64,000 bases of DNA. It comes from Acytostelium subglobosum LB1 (lineage: Eukaryota; Evosea; Eumycetozoa; Acytosteliales; Acytosteliaceae). Each line of letters begins with the position of its first letter. Positions within the stretch are counted from its first letter, which is position 1. A program made the translations under genes and the position numbers. Positions 37,801-49,408 of this stretch are shown in pieces. The stretch covers positions 1,338,576 to 1,402,575 of the forward strand of contig NW_012236528.1 of assembly GCF_000787575.1 (NCBI RefSeq), read 5' to 3'. The notes under the pieces are model-generated. The model was not told the origin of the DNA, ran no database searches, and saw only the letters and a list, made by a program, of their open reading frames with translations.

Positions 37801-40800
37801 GCCAGAACGTGGGGATCCAGGCGATCAAGTGGCGACAGAGCAACACGACTGGGTTGTTTGTGTAGTTGTTGTAAAAGTCAATGGAGGCGTGGCCACCGTT
37901 GCTGGCCATTCGCGTGGTGGAGGACTGTGAGTAGAGCAGCGAGCATATCTCGCCCACCGTGCCAATGTAGTTGGAGGACATTCTGAAGCGATCCCATTCG
38001 CTGCGCGCAAATGATTCGCACTCGGCCACCTTGTTCATGAACACAGACTCGGACGCCTCCGAGCTGACGTAGGCCAGAAGCTTGCGCTTCCAACCGGCGA
38101 AACGTGTGCGGAATGTGGACTTGATGCGTTCGACACCGCCGCTTGGCGAGCCTGGGACTGGGCCAACATGCTTGTACTGCAGGTACTGGCTCCTCCAGTT
38201 GTTGCCTCTGATGCCTGGGGCTGATGGAGAGGGCACGGCCGCGGACATTGCTCCACCGTTGGCCGCTGTGGACAACTGAAGACTGGTGAAAGTGTCTGAG
38301 AGGTTCTCCTCGATGGCCATAGATGAGGGCGAGAGTGGGCGCTGTGGAGGTGACTCTGGCGACATCTCGAATGACCCGGTGTTGCCAGACTGCTCCTGAT
38401 TGGGAGCACGGCTGGCCTGTTGATGCGAGTGAGGAGACTGCATCTTGGACTGCTGATTCAGGTGATTCTGTTGCTGCTGAATCAGCTGTTGCTGTTGCTG
38501 CTGGGTCTTGAAGTAGTGGGCCATCAGTGTTGACTTGCGAGTGACATTCTCCTTGAACTTGTCGAGCAGTGTGTGTTGGCGCGACCAGCTCGAGTTGGTC
38601 GATTGCTGAATCGTCTTGATCAACAAGGGGATGTTACTGTAGTCCTTCAACTGTCGCAATGATCGAATGGCGCTTGAGTAACCCGATGGCAATGTCTTGT
38701 TGAACTCGGCAGATGAGTAAAGCAATGGCTAATGATTGGGATGAGTTAGTGAATGATCGAGTGAGTGATTGGACTTTGATTACATACCATCAACTGGATC
38801 AACTTGAAGTTGTTGAGTACTTGATCAAAGTTGAGATTGTTGCGCGCATTACGATAGAGCTTCTTGAGTTGGGAGATCATGAGTCCCTTGGAGTTGAAGA
38901 TGCCCTTGGGATACTGGGTCTTGTTCTGGAACTTCTCACCCAACTCGGCAAACTGGACCAGTCCCTCGACAGACAGCTTCTGCATGAAGTTGGAGCCAAT
39001 GAAGAGGTCGGCGAGGTCTGCGGAGAGGCCGCGGTAGTCAAACGCAACGATGATCTGCTCGGCGTCGTTGAGGATACGTGTCACGTTGAACTTGGACACG
39101 TTGCCACGACGTGTGTCGTCCGAGAGCACAGTGATCTCGCGCTTACCCAGCAGAATGCTGCATGGCAGACGGAAGTGGATGCTGGCAGTAATGTAGCCGT
39201 AGCACGCCAACATCTCCTTTAGCTTCTCGCGAATGAAGATCCTGTCGACGTTGTGCTCCTTGCCGGCGCCACGGAACTGGATCGTCTTGCCAAAGAGGTT
39301 GCGCACGTTCTCGACGATGGGCAGGTCCCATGAGTTCTTGACCTCGGTGAGCACGTTGATCAGGCTGCCGCTCGATGACGACGTGGCGCCCTCGACGACC
39401 GAGGCATATGTCCACTTGAGAAACTCGAGACGACGCGTGTTCATTGGGATAGAGCGGTCTTGCTCGTACTGATGCAGCTCCCAGAGGATCTGGCGCAGGT
39501 CGGTCTCCGAGATGAACTCGACAATGAGCTCGCACACAGAGCTGTAGCTGAAGCGCAGCAGTTGTGCTGGCCCCAGACGGCCTTGAGGCAGAAGGAAAGT
39601 GTGGTTGTCGTTGATCATCGGTGTGGACTTGTCGTGGATGTACTGGCTGGTCTTGTAGATGGCCTCCATCTCGAGCTCGCGCTCCCTTGCCCAGTCGACC
39701 GAGCGGAAGAAGTGCTCATCCAGCTGGACGCACTTGTCAATCTTCAAGTTTGACGTCTGATTCAGCTGAGTCCTTAGCTTGTTCATCAATGCAATCGAGC
39801 TGGGATACTCCTCATTCATTGACTGTGCTTGTTGTTGTTGTTGTTGTTGTGGCTGTGGCTGAGGGTGTCCATTGAGTTCTTGTGCCCTTAGCCTGTGCGA
39901 GCCGAGCACTGGACGCCAATTGCTGTTTGTGGCGTTCATAAAGGTCGTCTGCAGGAGTGTGTTGATGAGGAAGCTCTTTCCAATACCGTTGGGTCCGATG
40001 ATGAGGATCGAGTGATGGTCCTTGACCCACACCCATCCATTCATCATGTTTGACAGACCGCTGGACGACGACGCCGAGTGGCCCATGCTGTTCATAAAGT
40101 TGGCGTTGCTGTTGTAGTGCGAGCGGTTGATGTGGCCGCGCGCGCCACGGATGCTCATCGCGTCCATGGCCAGATTCATCGAGCTGGTGTTACTGTTGAC
40201 GCTCATGTGGCTCGTGCTGCTCAGGTGGCTGCTCTGCTGGCTGGTGCTGCTCTGGCGCCAGCTGCTGCTGGTCGTGCCGTTGGAGTAGAGGCTGCTAACC
40301 ACACTACCCGTGTTGCTATGGCCGTTGCTGTTGCTGTTACTGTAGGCGTTGCTGGACGAGGAGACAACTGAGGCGCTGTCACTCTCGTCCGGACTGTCGC
40401 TATTGCTCCGCAGCGATTGAGTAGACTGTGGCGACATGGCAAAGTCTTCGAGGACTTGTGGCGCGGGCACAGTCGAGTCGGGATTGATGAGGTTATTGAT
40501 GCTCATACTGCTCTGATTGCTATGGCTAATGTTGCCAGTGCTACTACTATTACTACTGTTGTATGTGTTGTTCATGTGATTGTTGTTGTTGTTGTTGTTT
40601 GTGGCGCACTCCTCCTCTACTGTCTGTTGCAATAGAGTGATGAGGGATGACGGCGAGAAGTGCTTGGACTGCTGTTGGTCCATGCTTGGCGAGTGTGATC
40701 CATTGATGGCGGCTGGTTGAATGGATGGTCTTGGGAAGCTGTTAAAACTGTTGTTGGCGCTGTTGTTATGCACCTTATTGTTGTTGTTGTTGTTGTTGCC

Positions 40801-41747
40801 ACCCACGACCACGGTCGAGTAGCTTCCAAAGCTGCTGTTTGACGTATTGGCACTGTTTATGTTTGTGACGTTGAGCAAGTTGTTGTTGGATGTCGTGGGC
40901 TTGAAGTTATCAAAGCTGTTGGATGTGGACACGCCCGACGTGTAGTTTCCAAAGCTGTTGTTCGAGCTGTGTTGGCTGTTGGTGAGGCCTTTCAGGTTGC
41001 CAAAGCTGCTGTTTGAGCTGTTGGCGCTATTACTATTACTATTGTTGTTTAGAGTTACAGTTGGTGGCGTCTGAGAGGGCGGTGGAAGACCACTGGCAGC
41101 AGTGTACGATGAGCTGTAATGTCTCGAGCCATTGGGCGAGTTAGTTGTGCTTGTGTTGTTGTTGACGTTTTTATAGTTGTCGTAGCTGCCGCTGCTGCTC
41201 TTGCTGCCTGAGCGCGAGAGGGAGGACTTCTTATAGCGTGTGGACAGATGTGATGTGGGCAACTCTTTATCATCATCGTCCTCATGATTAAGTATTGTGA
41301 CGACGCCTCCCAACTGCGTCGTTGCGCCCAACGCGCTGTTATTGTTGAAGGGGAACATCAATCTTGAAGTGAGGTCTGTCCATCTTGGTAACATTGGTGA
41401 TGACAATGATAAGAATGCATTCTGTTGTTGTTGTTGTTGTTGCTGATGTTGCTGTTGTTGTTGATGATGTATTTGTTGTTGCTGTTGTTGCTGCTGTTGT
41501 TGATGTAGTTGTTGGCGTTGCTTCTCGCCAGCCAACACAAGATCATCCAACTCTTTATAGACCTGTCTCTCTAAATTATTATTATCATCATCATTGTTGC
41601 TCGCTATATCAAGTAATGTTAGCCATATATGTACATGTTGACCATGTATGACCTTGGAGTGGTAGTGGTAACGCGATACCTACGTGTTTCTTGTAAGAAC
41701 TTTCTCTTGCCAGCATGTTGTGTTGACTTTGGATAAGTGTCGCTCAT
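34817..41747 (-). CDS. Giant P-loop NTPase (dynamin-like) with C-terminal leucine-rich repeats
   Basis: Exons 41747-41684, 41603-38788 and 38728-34817 encode 2263 residues. Residues 20-550 are low-complexity (Gln, Asn, Ser). A P-loop IIGPNGIGKSFLINTLL follows at about 560; its GKS-LIN pattern and the following large alpha/beta-helical region (NDNHTFLLPQGRLG, VAFDYRGLSADLADLFI) recall large GTPases such as nuclear SLIP-GC/dynamin-like proteins. A second region (about 960-1600) contains Gln tracts and helical segments. About twenty cysteine-type LRRs (LxxLxLxxCxxITDxxI) fill about 1650-2260, as in F-box/LRR and AMN1 proteins, but no F-box is seen. The function is unknown. NTPase class is inference; no GTP-specific motif is certain. 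Confidence 0.8.
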
Positions 41748-42957: not shown

Positions 42958-45588
42958 ATGGAAATAGAAGATTTAGCGTCGTCATCCTCCAATCAGGTAT
43001 GATCATAAATTGTCCGAGTATTATTCACAACCTAATTATTCAATCAATCATTCAATTATTCAAACAAATAGGCAGGTGAAAGTACTCCACTTTTAAAAGT
43101 GGATAGGTCTCCAAAAGGTTGGAAACACGTTTGTGAGAAGATATGCCTTCCATTGATTTATATCCTTATCTCTGTCGTTGCCTTGGTCGGTACACTAATG
43201 ATCAGGATCTATGGTGAGATCTCTTTGATCCAAGTTGTTGGATCTGCATTCATCTCTGGAGTATTCGGACTCCTGTTTCTATTCGCCATCTACTCAATCA
43301 TATGCACGTGTCCGAAACGATTCCTTACGTCCATGGTCTGTTTGATCACATTGTGCATACTACGATGTGTGGAGAATGCCTTCCGTACCAAGGGCTATAT
43401 AGTGGACCCCGTCAACTCTACCACCACAATGCCCCCCTGGTTGATCACTGTACTGGCCATAATGGGCAGCGTCGACTTCTCCATGGCAATAGTCTTTGTC
43501 GACTTGGTCGTCAGGGATTACTATCAACAACTCAAGGGAACCGACACTCCCCTCACCAAGCTTCGAGTTGTGGCATTGGTATTCCTTTGCATCACCGAGG
43601 TTGCATTCATCCTGTTGACACTGGTACTGGTCAAAGATGTCAAGTATGAGCGCACTCTCTACATGATGGTACTCATCACCTCTGCTGTGTGGGCCAACAT
43701 CGCCGCATCAATCATCTTGATTTGGTGCAGTGCAGTACATATTCGCAGTTCCGTACTTCACTCGCAGGATCACATCTCCAATGGTCCGCTGGGAATGATG
43801 TTGGTCTTTGGCATGACGTTGCGCATTGCCATTGATGCCTACCAGATCTTCACGGGCACTGACATCATGGACTATCTTAGTGATGCCAACTCTGATCCAT
43901 TCTTTGATCTGTCCAAGGACATGTTGACTGAGGCCATTCCAATATTGTTCCACCTCTGGAATCTCAAGAAGGACCCAAACATCAAATTACTCAAGACCAA
44001 TGATGGTATTCGAGACGGTGACCAGTTGCCCGAGGTTGTGATACAGGGTGTCCAGGATGACATGCATCGTGATCGTGTAAAGATGTCCCTGCACTTTATA
44101 ATTGTCACATTGCACATCACGGCCACATGTTACGTCGTTGGCAACACCTCTGCAGAAGCTCCCGTGTCCTTGATCATAGCACGAGCCAGTGCATTCTGGG
44201 CATTCATCGACTACTCATTCCTTTTGATTGCCATCTGTTCTCCACTCGTCCAGCTATTCTACCGCCACTTCCACTCGGGTATCTCATCGCATTCGATCCA
44301 CAAGGTGCACTTCCATCTCACCATGGCACTCACACTGACCGTTGAAGCATTGATCCATGCATCGGCTCATGTCTACACTTGGCACCAATATCCCGACCTG
44401 ATGATCAATGGCAGGCGTGTATATTCGTGGACTGGCACAAGCAGTGTCCCCATCTACACCGGCATCGTGATGATCTTGACCATCATCATGGCACTCATCT
44501 CTGGCTGGTGTTTCCGATCGAGCAAGTCCATCAGGTTTGGCATCATACTGGCCAACACACATATCATCCTTGTCACACTCAATGTCTCTGTCTTCTTCTT
44601 CCATGGATACGCGCAGATCTTGGGACCGCCCATCGGTGACCGAGTGGTCTTGCTCGTCTCGATCGTCTTTGGCACGCTCTATCTCGTCTACTTCCTGGTC
44701 TATCTGCCAACGACATCCAAGGTGGAGCAGTTTGGATCGGATCCTCCAAGTGCACTTGCCGACTTTGTGTGGTTCAAGATCAAGGCAACAAGGGACATCG
44801 TCGACACATATGGCGCATACTGCACGATCTACTTGAAGAACACATTCTTTGCACATGGCCATCAATTCTCGTGCTATCACTGGCCTTGGATCAATGCTCA
44901 ACAGGACTTGGTAGCTGGAATGATCCCAACAAGCCCGCCAACAGCAGTCGCGGACTCGTTGGACAATGATCACGTCCACTTTGTCATTTGGATCAACAAG
45001 GAGGGACACTTCACAACTTCATTATGTCGCAACTTATTGGATGATCAGCCATTGACCATCCATGGACCCTATGTCTCATCTGGCAACTCAATGATTCAAA
45101 GGATATTGGAGGCAAGACATCCCGTGGACCTGTGTCTCTATGCTACCAACACAGGCATCACTGTGCTGATGTCAGTGCTCTCCCATCTCTTGTCCACGCC
45201 CACGTCTTTGGCCAAGGTCAGGACACTTCGTCTATTCTGGACGACCAGGTCATCGGTGCTTCAGAAACACATTGCCAGCCAGCTCAATGAGTGTTGGAGA
45301 CGAAGGGACACAGCCCTCAAAGACAGAACCAGGTTAAACGTGTTCTTTTGCAGGGTGAATAGTAGTGGCAATGCTAATGTGAGGCCACCATTCGAGAATG
45401 AGCCCATCACCTACCTGCAATACAATGACGAAGCCATACGCAGTGCTGTCTTCCCAAATGGTTGGGCACAATCAAACTACCAGCCATACTTCCTCTACTG
45501 TGGTGATGATCTACAGAGAGCACTAGATAACTGTTATTATCACAACGGTATTATTCCAATGCATGTATTCTCAGAGACCTCAAAATAA
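42958..45588 (+). CDS. Seven-TM region fused to a ferric-reductase/NOX-like core
   Basis: Exons 42958-42996 and 43072-45588 encode 851 residues. After a short polar N-terminus there are seven hydrophobic helices (residues about 35-280), a loop, then six more (about 345-580). In the second set, two helices carry pairs of His separated by 13 residues (FHLTMALTLTVEALIHASAH; THIILVTLNVSVFFFH), the bis-heme ligand spacing of NADPH oxidases and ferric reductases. The cytosolic tail (about 585-851) resembles an FAD/NAD-binding unit (HGPYVSSGN; LCLYATNTGITVLMSVL) but the canonical HPFTxTS and GxGxxP motifs are altered. Transmembrane electron transfer is plausible; the role of the N-terminal 7TM part is unknown. 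The substrate cannot be told. Confidence 0.75.
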
Positions 45589-46390: not shown

Positions 46391-48424
46391 ATGGATGATC
46401 CTATAGCCTCAACCTCCTCAACATCAACATCAACTTCTGCCTCAAAACAACAACAGCAGTATCAATATCATAACCCAAAGAATAGCAGTAGCAGTAGCAA
46501 TAGTAGTAGCGGTTACAACAATAATAACAATAATAATAATAATAATAGTAATAATAATAATGTAAACAACCCACCTGGCTATGCTGGTTGGGGCGCAAGG
46601 AGTGTAGACATCTTTGAGAAGATTGAACAGATTGGTGAAGGTACCTTTGGGTATGTGTCTGTCTGCTGCTTCACATCACATCGCATCACAATCGTACTCA
46701 CTCACTCATATATGTACATACTCTAACCTCATGCATGTTGTCGACGTCATCATCCTCAGTGCCGTGTATAAAGCAAAGAACAAGATGACAGATGAGATTG
46801 TAGCTCTGAAGCGAGTATTGATGGAGAATGAAAGCGAAGGAGTATGTGTCAGTCACTCACTCTATCAATCAATCATTCAATCGAATATACTAATCATGCT
46901 ATAGTTCCCAATCACTGCGATAAGAGAGATCAAGATTCTAAAGGAATTGAATCATATGAATGTGGTCAAGTTGAAGGAGATAGCAGTGTCAAAGGCATCA
47001 CAAGCCAATCAAGGCAAGGGCAGCGTGTATATGGTCTTTGAATTCATGGACCACGACCTGAATGGTCTGATGGACAGTCCAGCATTCAAATGTTTCAAGC
47101 CCGATCAGATCAAATGCTATCTAAAGCAGCTGCTCGAAGGTCTCGAGTACTGCCACCGCAACAACATCCTACATCGCGACATCAAAGGCTCGAACCTATT
47201 GCTCAACAATGAAGGAATATTGAAGCTTGCAGGTATGTATGATTGATTGATTGAGTGAGTGAACGAGTGCGCTGACAGACACCCTCCCCTGGTCCATTAA
47301 TTAGACTTTGGATTAGCGCGACCAAATAACAACTCGGACCAGAACAAACAGTTGACCAACCGTGTCATCACTCTTTGGTATCGACCACCTGAACTGATAC
47401 TTGGCTCGGTGAACTATGGACCCGAGATCGATATGTGGTCGGTGGGCTGTATAATGGCCGAGCTGCTCACAAGGAAGACACTGTTCCCTGGCCGCAACCC
47501 AATCGATCAATTGGATAAGATCTTCCACTACTGTGGCACTCCAACCGAGGAGAACTGGCCAGGTGTTCACGAGCTGCAATGGTGGGACACTCTCAAGCCC
47601 AAGAAGGAGCAGAAGCGCATACTTCGTGAGGAACTACTCAAGAACCCGTATGTGTCTATTTGATTGATTGATTGCGCATGGCCGCCATGGAAACTGACCC
47701 TCCGCTCATTCATTTAGCGACAATCACATTACGTCCGAGGCGTTGGACTTGCTGGACAGACTGTTGTGTCTGGATCCAAAGCAGAGAATATCGGCCACGG
47801 AGGCACTTGACAGCGCATACTTCTGGACCAAGCCACTGCCATGTGATCCAAGTCAGTAGGTATCAATGTAGTTGGTTGGACCTCATGCTCAATCCCATTC
47901 TAACACGCACCAGTCTACCTAAATATCCATCATGTCATGAGTATAACACAAAGAAGAAGAGACAGATGATGCATCAACAGCAGCAACAACAGCAACAAGG
48001 TCATGGCTCCAACCCAAACGACCCAAACAAAAAGCAACGAGTCGACAACTATCATTCACAGGCGCCACCACCAAACTATCAATATGGCTCCAAGCCAATG
48101 CCACAGAGCGGTCCACCTCGTGGCCCACCTCAATCAACGATGCCCAACCCGTCGCACAGTGGCGGAGGTGGCAGCGGCATGCCACGTCAGAGCTATCCAT
48201 CGGCGCATCATCAACCTTCACAAACACATTCGCGCAGCAGTTATCTGCCTCAACAGCAGCCAATGCATCCTGGCGCTGGTGGTCATCATCAACCTCCTCC
48301 CCAAGGCCAACCACCCTACCGATCACATGGACAACAACCATCCGGTGGCTACAGTGGCAGTGGTAGTGGTAGTGGTAAACCACCTGGTAGTGGTAGCAGT
48401 GGAAGCAGTGGTGACAGGAGATAG
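46391..48424 (+). CDS. cdk12: CDK12-like cyclin-dependent kinase
   Basis: Six exons (46391-46650, 46760-46841, 46905-47232, 47305-47647, 47718-47855, 47914-48424) encode 553 residues. The N-terminus is Ser/Gln/Asn-rich. The kinase (about 70-365) has GEGTFGAVYKAK, VALKR, the cyclin-contact helix [28 protein letters not shown] and [18 protein letters not shown] and the LWYRPPE segment place it with CDK12/13 (and CDK9), kinases of RNA polymerase II C-terminal-domain Ser2. The C-terminus is Gln/Pro/Gly/Ser-rich. The last junction (CA|GTAGGT to CAG|T) joins LPCDPS to [16 protein letters not shown], as expected for the family. Exon 2 start is fixed by the glycine loop. Confidence 0.93.
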
Positions 48425-49006
48425 ATAGGTAGACGAATAAACTCATTCTTGTTAGTATTATGACGAACTTCCAAGTTGATTCAACTCTTTGATTTGATTT
48501 TATTTTTTGAAGATTAATTTTCAAAGTTCCACAACGACTCGTGTGTGTCTGGCGAGTGAGCGAGGATGGGGATGCACGCACCTTGACAAAGAGCCAAGAT
48601 ATCCGCATTGTCAATACTCACCAGTGTTCCCTATCACAACTCTGATGTATGTGCATATGACATAGATTGACAATCCTATCCTCGAATCGATACCTTACGA
48701 GCTCTACGAGATGCGATATGATACGACACGATCATTCACATGAAACCGACAACTCAAGCATCGACATATCATTCAACCAGCCATTCATACAACACCCATC
48801 AAGCAATCAATAATCAATCTATCACCACATCATCATTCAATCATCAATCATCACAACATCATCGTCAACAAACATCAATCGCGAACGAACAATCGACAGG
48901 AATGACAGAATGAATGATAAATGAGCGATGAATCGTATCGAGGATAGGTTAGCATGACGACGAAGAGGAAGGATATTAACGATTGACGAACGAATATATA
49001 GATACA
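48425..49006. other. Upstream region of rpl32
   Basis: A 582-bp spacer in the same direction as both neighbours. It carries CATCATCAAT/TCATTCAATC repeats and several GATACGA/CGATACG words near 48690-48730. It should hold the CDK12-like 3' end and the rpl32 promoter. No other gene is seen. Confidence 0.55.
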
Positions 49007-49408
49007 ATGCCATCCCCAGTCGTCAGAACCAAGATCGTCAAGAAGAGAACAGCTAGATTCGTTCGTTTCCAGTCTGATCTCTTTGCCAGAGTCAAGCCAT
49101 CATGGAGAAAGCCAAGAGGTATTGACAATCGTGTCAGAAGAAGATTCTCTGGCGCCCGCCCAATGCCATCCGTTGGTTATGGTTCGGACAACTCCACCAA
49201 GAACGTCTGCCCAGACGGATACAAGCACTTTGTCATCAGAAACATCAAGGAGCTCGAGGTCCTCCTCATGCACAACAGACGTTACGCTGCCGAGATCTAC
49301 CACGGTGTCTCTGCTCAGTCCAGAAAGGCCATCGTCGAGCGTGCTCGCGAGCTTGACATCAAGGTCACCAACGCCAACGCTAGATTGAGAAGCCAAGAGA
49401 GCGAATAA
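49007..49408 (+). CDS. rpl32: 60S ribosomal protein L32 (eL32)
   Basis: A single exon of 133 residues. eL32 landmarks: [65 protein letters not shown] and the C-terminal [10 protein letters not shown]. Codons are strongly C-biased as in abpC, fitting high expression. The ATG at 49007 gives MPSPVVRTK and is preferred over upstream in-frame codons, which lack an ATG. AATAAA follows at about 49475. Confidence 0.98.

What the first reader, a model, noticed from the sequence alone, without database searches (positions are those of the whole stretch)
42958..45588. 7TM module fused to a bis-heme ferric-reductase/NOX-like core
Thirteen predicted membrane helices: seven at the N-terminus, then six that include two helices each with His pairs 13 residues apart, the heme-ligand spacing of NOX and FRE proteins. 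The flavin and pyridine-nucleotide motifs of the tail are altered. A receptor-like 7TM region on an electron-transfer core would be a new architecture, perhaps ligand-gated superoxide or metal reduction.
Basis: partly seen in the sequence, partly recalled or inferred. Interest (0 to 1): 0.7.

Follow-up and report, generated by a model that had tools for sequence, protein, structure and literature searches.

The report
Amoeba NOX-like heme protein, extra helices
A social-amoeba gene encodes a membrane protein whose heme-carrying core resembles that of superoxide-making NADPH oxidases, but with an unclassified block of membrane helices in front and a worn-down enzyme tail; it looks like an unusual variant of a known kind, with no evidence that the front block is a receptor.

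Summary
The observation largely holds. One gene (ATG 42958, intron 42997-43071, stop 45588; 851 aa by my model) has 13 hydrophobic segments before its tail. The last six are homologous to the NOX/FRE ferric reductase domain: hhalign P 2.1e-6 against the genome's three NOX proteins, against 0.0067 for the best of 24 unrelated 7TM sequences. Both His pairs fall on the NOX heme ligands. [quoted passage not shown] The tail is weakly flavin-reductase-like (only PDB match CYB5R4, E 0.0073), with eroded FAD and NAD motifs. The N-terminal module matches no Pfam family, no PDB sequence and none of three 7TM families of this genome; my own THH1/TOM1 idea failed its controls. 'Seven' helices and a receptor role are unsupported: K/R counts and an ESTPLL motif favour a cytosolic N-terminus, hence six or eight helices. 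Two or six extra N-terminal helices are already reported in protist and plant FREs (PMC3591440). Structure models were unusable and no orthologue was reachable. Verdict: new variant of a known kind.

The parts
42958..42996 (+). exon 1, MEIEDLASSSSNQ
   Evidence: ATG in frame with exon 2 through a GT-AG intron; no transcript evidence
42997..43071 (+). predicted intron, 75 bases, AT-rich; using the next AG would give a stop after six codons
   Evidence: sequence read directly
43072..45588 (+). exon 2, one open frame to the stop codon; carries the N-terminal module, heme core and tail
   Evidence: third-position GC 0.41-0.68 in nine blocks along the frame
43078..43095 (+). ESTPLL, an acidic-dileucine-like sorting motif (recalled pattern [DE]xxxL[LI])
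   Evidence: sequence; meaning of the motif recalled, not from a call
43141..43851 (+). N-terminal membrane module, seven hydropathy segments (six to eight helices possible), family unknown
43909..43971 (+). weak hydrophobic stretch LSKDMLTEAIPILFHLWNLKK, possible re-entrant or eighth helix, too polar by my scale
   Evidence: dG score 8.99, against -1.74 to 4.08 for the 13 segments
44083..44700 (+). six-helix ferric reductase (bis-heme) domain
   Evidence: hhalign P 2.1e-6 against three own NOX; blastp E 1.8e-5 to 2.8e-4 against each, composition correction off, one subject at a time; PF01794 E 0.0043, 17.5 bits, below its 28-bit cut-off
44182..44184 (+). Arg (P0001 R370) aligned with Arg of NOX L062 and L061 (Lys in L001); candidate O2-site arginine
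   Evidence: alignment; NOX5 R256 in PMC10510401
44314..44316 (+). His (H414) aligned by hhalign with the NOX2 His-101 equivalent, inner heme (MAFFT chose H409 instead)
44356..44358 (+). His (H428) aligned with the NOX2 His-115 equivalent, outer heme
44368..44370 (+). His (H432) aligned with the NOX2 His-119 equivalent, O2-site/NOX-signature histidine
44458..44463 (+). Thr-Gly (T462-G463) aligned with NOX2 Thr-178/Gly-179 equivalents
44560..44562 (+). His (H496) of the fifth core helix; falls on the THH of NOX (His-209 region), pair one residue wider than NOX2 209/222
44602..44604 (+). His (H510) aligned with the NOX2 His-222 equivalent
44740..45585 (+). C-terminal tail, diverged flavin-reductase-like region; HPFT, GxGIGxxP, CGP and terminal Phe of NOX not kept
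   Evidence: phmmer CYB5R4 E 0.0073; tail alone against NOX tails P 0.088, inside shuffles

Best explanation
[quoted passage not shown] A NOX-type six-helix bundle holds two b hemes stacked across an endolysosomal or plasma membrane, and an unclassified N-terminal helix module is fused in front. Most likely mechanism: electrons enter at the cytosolic (inner) heme, pass to the outer heme, and reduce O2 (or less likely Fe3+/Cu2+) on the luminal/outer side. Because the tail's FAD and NAD(P)H motifs are eroded, the tail either works as a poor or altered dehydrogenase or serves as a docking surface for a separate reductase. The N-terminal module would anchor, sort or regulate the core. Shown: one open frame, homology of the six-helix core to NOX, heme His and NOX-signature residues in register, eroded tail motifs. 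Inferred: heme binding, electron direction, electron acceptor, location, and everything about the N-terminal module.
For: Core against a profile of the three own-genome NOX cores: hhalign P 2.1e-6, score 46.2; best of 100 helix-class-preserving shuffles 23.3; 24 unrelated own-genome 7TM sequences best P 0.0067. hmmsearch: 16.4 bits against 4.4 for the best of 500 shuffles, with one NOX misjoined. Blastp E against each NOX 1.8e-5, 1.8e-4 and 2.8e-4, composition correction off. PF01794 E 0.0043 on the core alone. [quoted passage not shown] Tail: CYB5R4 E 0.0073 across the nucleotide-binding stretch. A sequon (NTS, residues 371-373 of the 851-aa model) lies in the first core loop, outside in NOX topology (recalled).
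Against: PF01794 on the core scores 17.5, under the curated 28; it does not appear for the whole exon-2 protein at E <= 10, and the own-genome PF01794 search did not list the window. HMMER's bias term is as large as the score against the NOX profile (16.8 against 16.4). The fifth-helix His pair is one residue wider than in NOX2. One alignment places the first helix-3 His differently. The tail alone does not beat shuffles against NOX tails (P 0.088), and canonical FAD/NAD motifs are missing, so catalysis on its own is doubtful. Both structure models are poor (mean pLDDT 46.2 and 40.8), and Foldseek on the core-plus-tail model found nothing at E <= 0.001. No orthologue was available to show that the His residues are under selection.
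Confidence: 0.5

Rival explanations
1. Pseudo-oxidase: the bundle still binds heme, but the eroded tail cannot reduce it. The protein serves as a regulator, heme sensor or partner of the three canonical NOX proteins of the same cell.
For: HPFT, GxGIGxxP and CGP motifs and the C-terminal Phe of NOX are all changed; canonical NOX genes exist at three other places.
Against: The four heme His, the candidate O2-site Arg and His, and Thr-Gly are all kept, which is not expected if electron transfer was lost long ago. The tail keeps some FNR-like features (GPY, TGIT, LFW, by eye).
Confidence: 0.25
2. Metalloreductase of the protist FRE kind with extra N-terminal helices, reducing Fe3+ or Cu2+ in endosomes or at the surface.
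For: [quoted passage not shown] The fifth-helix pair has one more residue between the His than NOX2 209/222.
Against: All four positions given as marking NOX over FRE are present.
Confidence: 0.15
3. Ligand-gated receptor-oxidase: the N-terminal block is a true 7TM receptor that switches the NOX-like core.
For: Seven hydropathy segments; a single polypeptide.
Against: No Pfam family at E <= 10 other than a 20-residue stretch at E 0.61, no PDB sequence, no match to PF06454, PF05462 or PF00003 members of this genome (cAR and 7tm_3 profiles made from 4 and 7 single frames, some of them partial). K/R counts favour N-in (12 against 6), though the N-terminal stretch also holds six D/E; an N-in module needs an even number of helices before an N-in core.
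Confidence: 0.06
4. Composition artefact: an unrelated multi-helix transporter whose His pairs and NOX similarity come from hydrophobic composition.
For: The His pairs alone arise in about 1% of shuffles; Pfam score below cut-off; HMMER bias term as large as the score; models unusable.
Against: Helix-class-preserving shuffles and 24 real 7TM sequences score far lower; signature positions match in register.
Confidence: 0.04

Closest known systems
NOX family (own-genome L001, L062, L061; NoxA/NoxB/NoxC-like by my reading)
   Same: six-helix core, heme His in helices 3 and 5, His-119 equivalent (in L001 and L062, not L061), Thr-178/Gly-179 equivalents, helix-2 Arg (L062, L061)
   Different: N-terminal multi-helix block, fifth-helix His spacing one wider, HPFT/GxGIGxxP/CGP and C-terminal Phe not kept; 23-24% identical over the aligned core
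Protist/plant ferric reductases (ppFRE) with two or six extra N-terminal helices (PMC3591440)
   Same: extra membrane helices before the ferric reductase domain
   Different: carries His-119 and Thr-178, which the paper gives as conserved in NOX and not in eFRE; whether the extra helices are homologous was not testable
Fungal TmpA/TmpB/TmpL membrane flavoproteins (PMC2766074, PMC4804170)
   Same: six helices plus a reductase tail with only a weak ferric-reductase signal, in TmpB and TmpL with a fused N-terminal domain
Cytochrome b5 reductase 4 (PDB 6mv1)
   Same: weak match over the nucleotide-binding part of the tail (E 0.0073)
   Different: the matched chain is a flavin-reductase domain without the membrane core; its FAD motif (recalled as RPYT) has no counterpart in the window protein

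Membership tests
Ferric reductase domain (FRD) superfamily | six-helix bundle with four heme His in helices 3 and 5 | tested here: met
   hhalign P 2.1e-6 with His in register; PF01794 E 0.0043 but below cut-off; heme itself not tested
NOX | His-101, His-119, Thr-178, Gly-179 (NOX2 numbers, PMC3591440) | tested here: met
   H414, H432, T462, G463 of P0001; positions; first His placed differently by MAFFT
NOX | FAD motif HPFT and NADPH motifs GxGIGxxP and CGP | tested here: not met
   IPTS, ATNTGITV, CGD in the window; HPFT and GxGIGxxP in 3 of 3 own NOX, CGP in 2 of 2 whose C-terminal exon I had
NOX | C-terminal Phe that gates access of NADPH | tested here: not met
   ends FSETSK; NOX L001 and L062 end KENF; role from PMC10510401
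NOX | superoxide production | not testable with these tools
   needs an assay
Metalloreductase FRE (ppFRE) | without the NOX-conserved His-119 and Thr-178 (implied by PMC3591440) | tested here: not met
   both present
Metalloreductase FRE (ppFRE) | extra N-terminal helices, two or six | tested here: inconclusive
   six to eight helices possible; homology untested
THH1/TOM1/TOM3 7TM (PF06454) | profile match | tested here: not met
   P 0.099, inside shuffles; 6 of 6 left-out members (of 13 in the set) P <= 7.3e-8
GPCR (cAR PF05462, 7tm_3 PF00003) | profile match | tested here: not met
   P 0.42 and 0.12 against profiles from 4 and 7 own-genome frames; no Pfam GPCR family listed at E <= 10
TmpA/TmpL flavoproteins | sequence similarity to TmpA | not tested

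The most novel reading that the evidence does not exclude
A NOX-type oxygen-reducing bis-heme core that has given up its own flavin dehydrogenase and is fed and gated through a fused, previously undescribed membrane module and an outside electron donor, i.e. a self-contained sensor-oxidase in one polypeptide.
Probability: 0.1. Interest if true: 0.7.

Novelty: new variant of a known kind. Interest (0 to 1): 0.38.

Why it matters
If the core is active, this social amoeba has a NOX-like protein beside its three canonical NOX genes, with the heme and O2-site residues kept and the flavin/NAD(P)H motifs eroded. That would let one test how much of the dehydrogenase a NOX core needs, and what extra N-terminal helices do in FRD proteins. 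If it is inactive, it is a candidate pseudo-oxidase regulator. A 7TM receptor-oxidase would be striking but has no support beyond a helix count.

Tried and rejected
THH1/TOM1/TOM3 identity of the N-terminal block: a by-eye likeness in the last stretch (TEAIP vs TEIIP) led me to test it; rejected by hhalign against own-genome members, with leave-one-out positives and shuffles. GPCR families PF05462 and PF00003: no match. N-terminal block as a second ferric-reductase bundle: P 0.7.

Structure: AlphaFold2 without an alignment gave mean pLDDT 46.2 (N-terminal block) and 40.8 (core plus tail). Foldseek was run on the core-plus-tail model only: 412 matches at E <= 10, none at E <= 0.001, and the 50 shown are soluble proteins such as Dot1L, other methyltransferases and Argonautes. 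I did not use these models as evidence.

Relatives: none in viral contigs (2 stretches matched a pattern, none confirmed), in plasmids at E <= 1, or in bacterial/archaeal genomes (14 and 128 stretches matched a pattern, none confirmed). The only other own-genome match, L005 (E 0.0033), lies opposite a frame that reads like a GATA zinc-finger protein (my reading) and looks spurious. Other eukaryotes cannot be searched here.

Papers: PMC3591440 read in sections 13, 14 and 16 plus passages; PMC2766074, PMC4804170, PMC10510401, PMC8129163 and PMC10445921 as passages only. Whether the architecture is in print was probed only by the searches; PMC10445921 on dictyostelid GPCRs has no word starting 'reductase' or 'oxidase' in its main text.

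Full report
What is there. The window lies in a 30.7 Mb genome of 56 contigs. The gene has an intron, and the genome carries the Dicty_CAR cAMP-receptor family at 10 places, so I take it for a dictyostelid; the 14 control genomes of that call show no match, but they include bacteria and are no test between eukaryotes. The gene runs from ATG 42958 through a 75-base AT-rich intron (42997-43071) to a stop at 45588; exon 2 is a single open frame. The N-terminal block and the core are encoded in the same exon, so the fusion does not depend on splicing. No Pfam or NCBIfam model matches the exon-2 protein at E <= 10, and a search of the genome found no paralogue (itself plus one spurious hit).

The core. 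Cut out on its own, the six-helix region (44020-44730) matches PF01794 Ferric_reduct at E 0.0043, 17.5 bits, under the curated 28; with the tail attached E is 0.01, and for the whole exon-2 protein it is not listed. The own-genome PF01794 search lists three other places and not the window; by their sequence these three are canonical NOX genes. Against a profile of the cores of these three, the window core scores 46.2 with P 2.1e-6 over 151 columns; the best of 100 shuffles that keep helix and loop composition scores 23.3; 24 unrelated 7TM sequences of the same genome have best P 0.0067. An hmmsearch with a first version of the profile, in which one NOX was misjoined, gave 16.4 bits against 4.4 for the best of 500 shuffles, with a bias term of 16.8. 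Single NOX proteins by blastp, composition correction off, give E 1.8e-5, 1.8e-4 and 2.8e-4. As a check on scale, each NOX against the other two gives P 7.6e-30 or lower, so the window core is a remote, not a close, relative.

In the hhalign register window H414, H428 and H432 (P0001 numbers) fall on the NOX helix-3 His that correspond to NOX2 101, 115 and 119, T462-G463 fall on the Thr-Gly of helix 4, and H496/H510 on the helix-5 pair, with one extra residue between them. MAFFT instead put an earlier His of the window (H409) on the first NOX His; the 13-residue spacing favours H414, so this one position is less certain. R370 falls on the Arg of NOX L062 and L061 (Lys in L001). Zhang et al. 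(PMC3591440, sections 13, 14 and 16 read; [quoted passage not shown] discoideum NOXC as an exception without His-119; own-genome L061, which has EF-hand-like sequence upstream (my reading), also lacks it. The window has all four. The O2 site of NOX5 is described as lined by R256, H317 and the iron-binding H313 (PMC10510401, passages), and R256S and H317R mutants had an oxidation rate at least fivefold lower (PMC8129163, passage). The window's R370 to H428 distance (58) is close to the 57 between R256 and H313.

The tail. Alone, it finds only cytochrome b5 reductase 4 among PDB sequences at E <= 10, E 0.0073, over the stretch that holds the nucleotide-binding turn. Against NOX tails it does not beat shuffles (P 0.088, score 18.7; best of 100 shuffles 20.6). 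By position, WHPFT of NOX falls on MIPTS, GPFG on GPYV, GAGIGxTP on ATNTGITV, CGP on CGD, and the last Phe is gone (partly judged by eye, the HPFT site ambiguous).

The N-terminal block. Pfam gives only a 20-residue stretch at E 0.61; PDB sequences give nothing at E <= 10. I suspected the THH1/TOM1/TOM3 family, which has 32 matched places in this genome. Against an alignment of 13 sequences built from these the block reaches P 0.099 (score 17.9; best of 100 shuffles 24.1), while 6 of 6 left-out members reach P 7.3e-8 or lower; against subsets, cAR, 7tm_3 and NOX the best P is 0.051. The cAR and 7tm_3 profiles came from 4 and 7 single frames, some partial. So by these tests it is an orphan. K/R counts in the short loops are 12 to 6 in favour of a cytosolic N-terminus, although the N-terminal stretch also holds six D/E; this fits the ESTPLL acidic-dileucine pattern at its start (recalled motif) and a sequon in the third loop. 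Since the FRD core starts on the cytosolic side in NOX (recalled topology), an even number of helices, six or eight, would be expected before it. The only candidate eighth stretch is too polar by my scale (8.99), and two of the seven are weak (3.2 and 3.84), so six is possible. The scale and the scan are home-made. The number seven is therefore not established.

Precedent. Protist and plant FRE proteins with two or six extra N-terminal helices, and fungal FREs with one, are described in PMC3591440 section 13. A block of extra helices before this domain is thus known; its combination with a NOX-type signature and an eroded tail is what is unusual as far as my searches go. Fungal TmpA, TmpB and TmpL (PMC2766074 and PMC4804170, passages) are six-helix flavoproteins; TmpB and TmpL carry a fused adenylation domain and TmpA/TmpB act in sporulation signalling, but no comparison of sequence was possible.

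How it most likely works. Electron transfer across an endolysosomal or surface membrane through two b hemes to O2 is my leading reading (0.5), with a pseudo-oxidase (0.25) and a metal reductase (0.15) as rivals; a receptor-oxidase stays possible (0.06). Heme binding, electron donor, acceptor, location and the role of the N-terminal block are all inferred.

Limits. Both structure models are too poor to use. Exon joins of the comparison proteins are approximate.

Noticed in passing
L026-L033 (own genome contigs C17, C39, C49, C53, C54, C35): At least eight frames (942 to 1578 aa) carry a long Cys-rich stretch before a THH1/TOM1/TOM3-type 7TM domain (PF06454); several lie near each other on C35 and C39. 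The family has 32 matched places in the genome.
   Followed up: partly
window 46947-47660 and 48983-49405: Protein kinase exons and a ribosomal protein L32e gene lie downstream of the gene; no functional link seen.
   Followed up: no
L061 (own genome C24:281000-285500): The NOX with EF-hand-like upstream sequence has Trp instead of the third helix-3 His (HSIGW); PMC3591440 names D. discoideum NOXC as lacking that His too.
   Followed up: partly
window 38746-41550, - strand: 934-codon frame with Gln/Asn-rich runs and a GxxxxGKS-like motif (IIGPNGIGKS) has no Pfam match at E <= 0.001.
   Followed up: no
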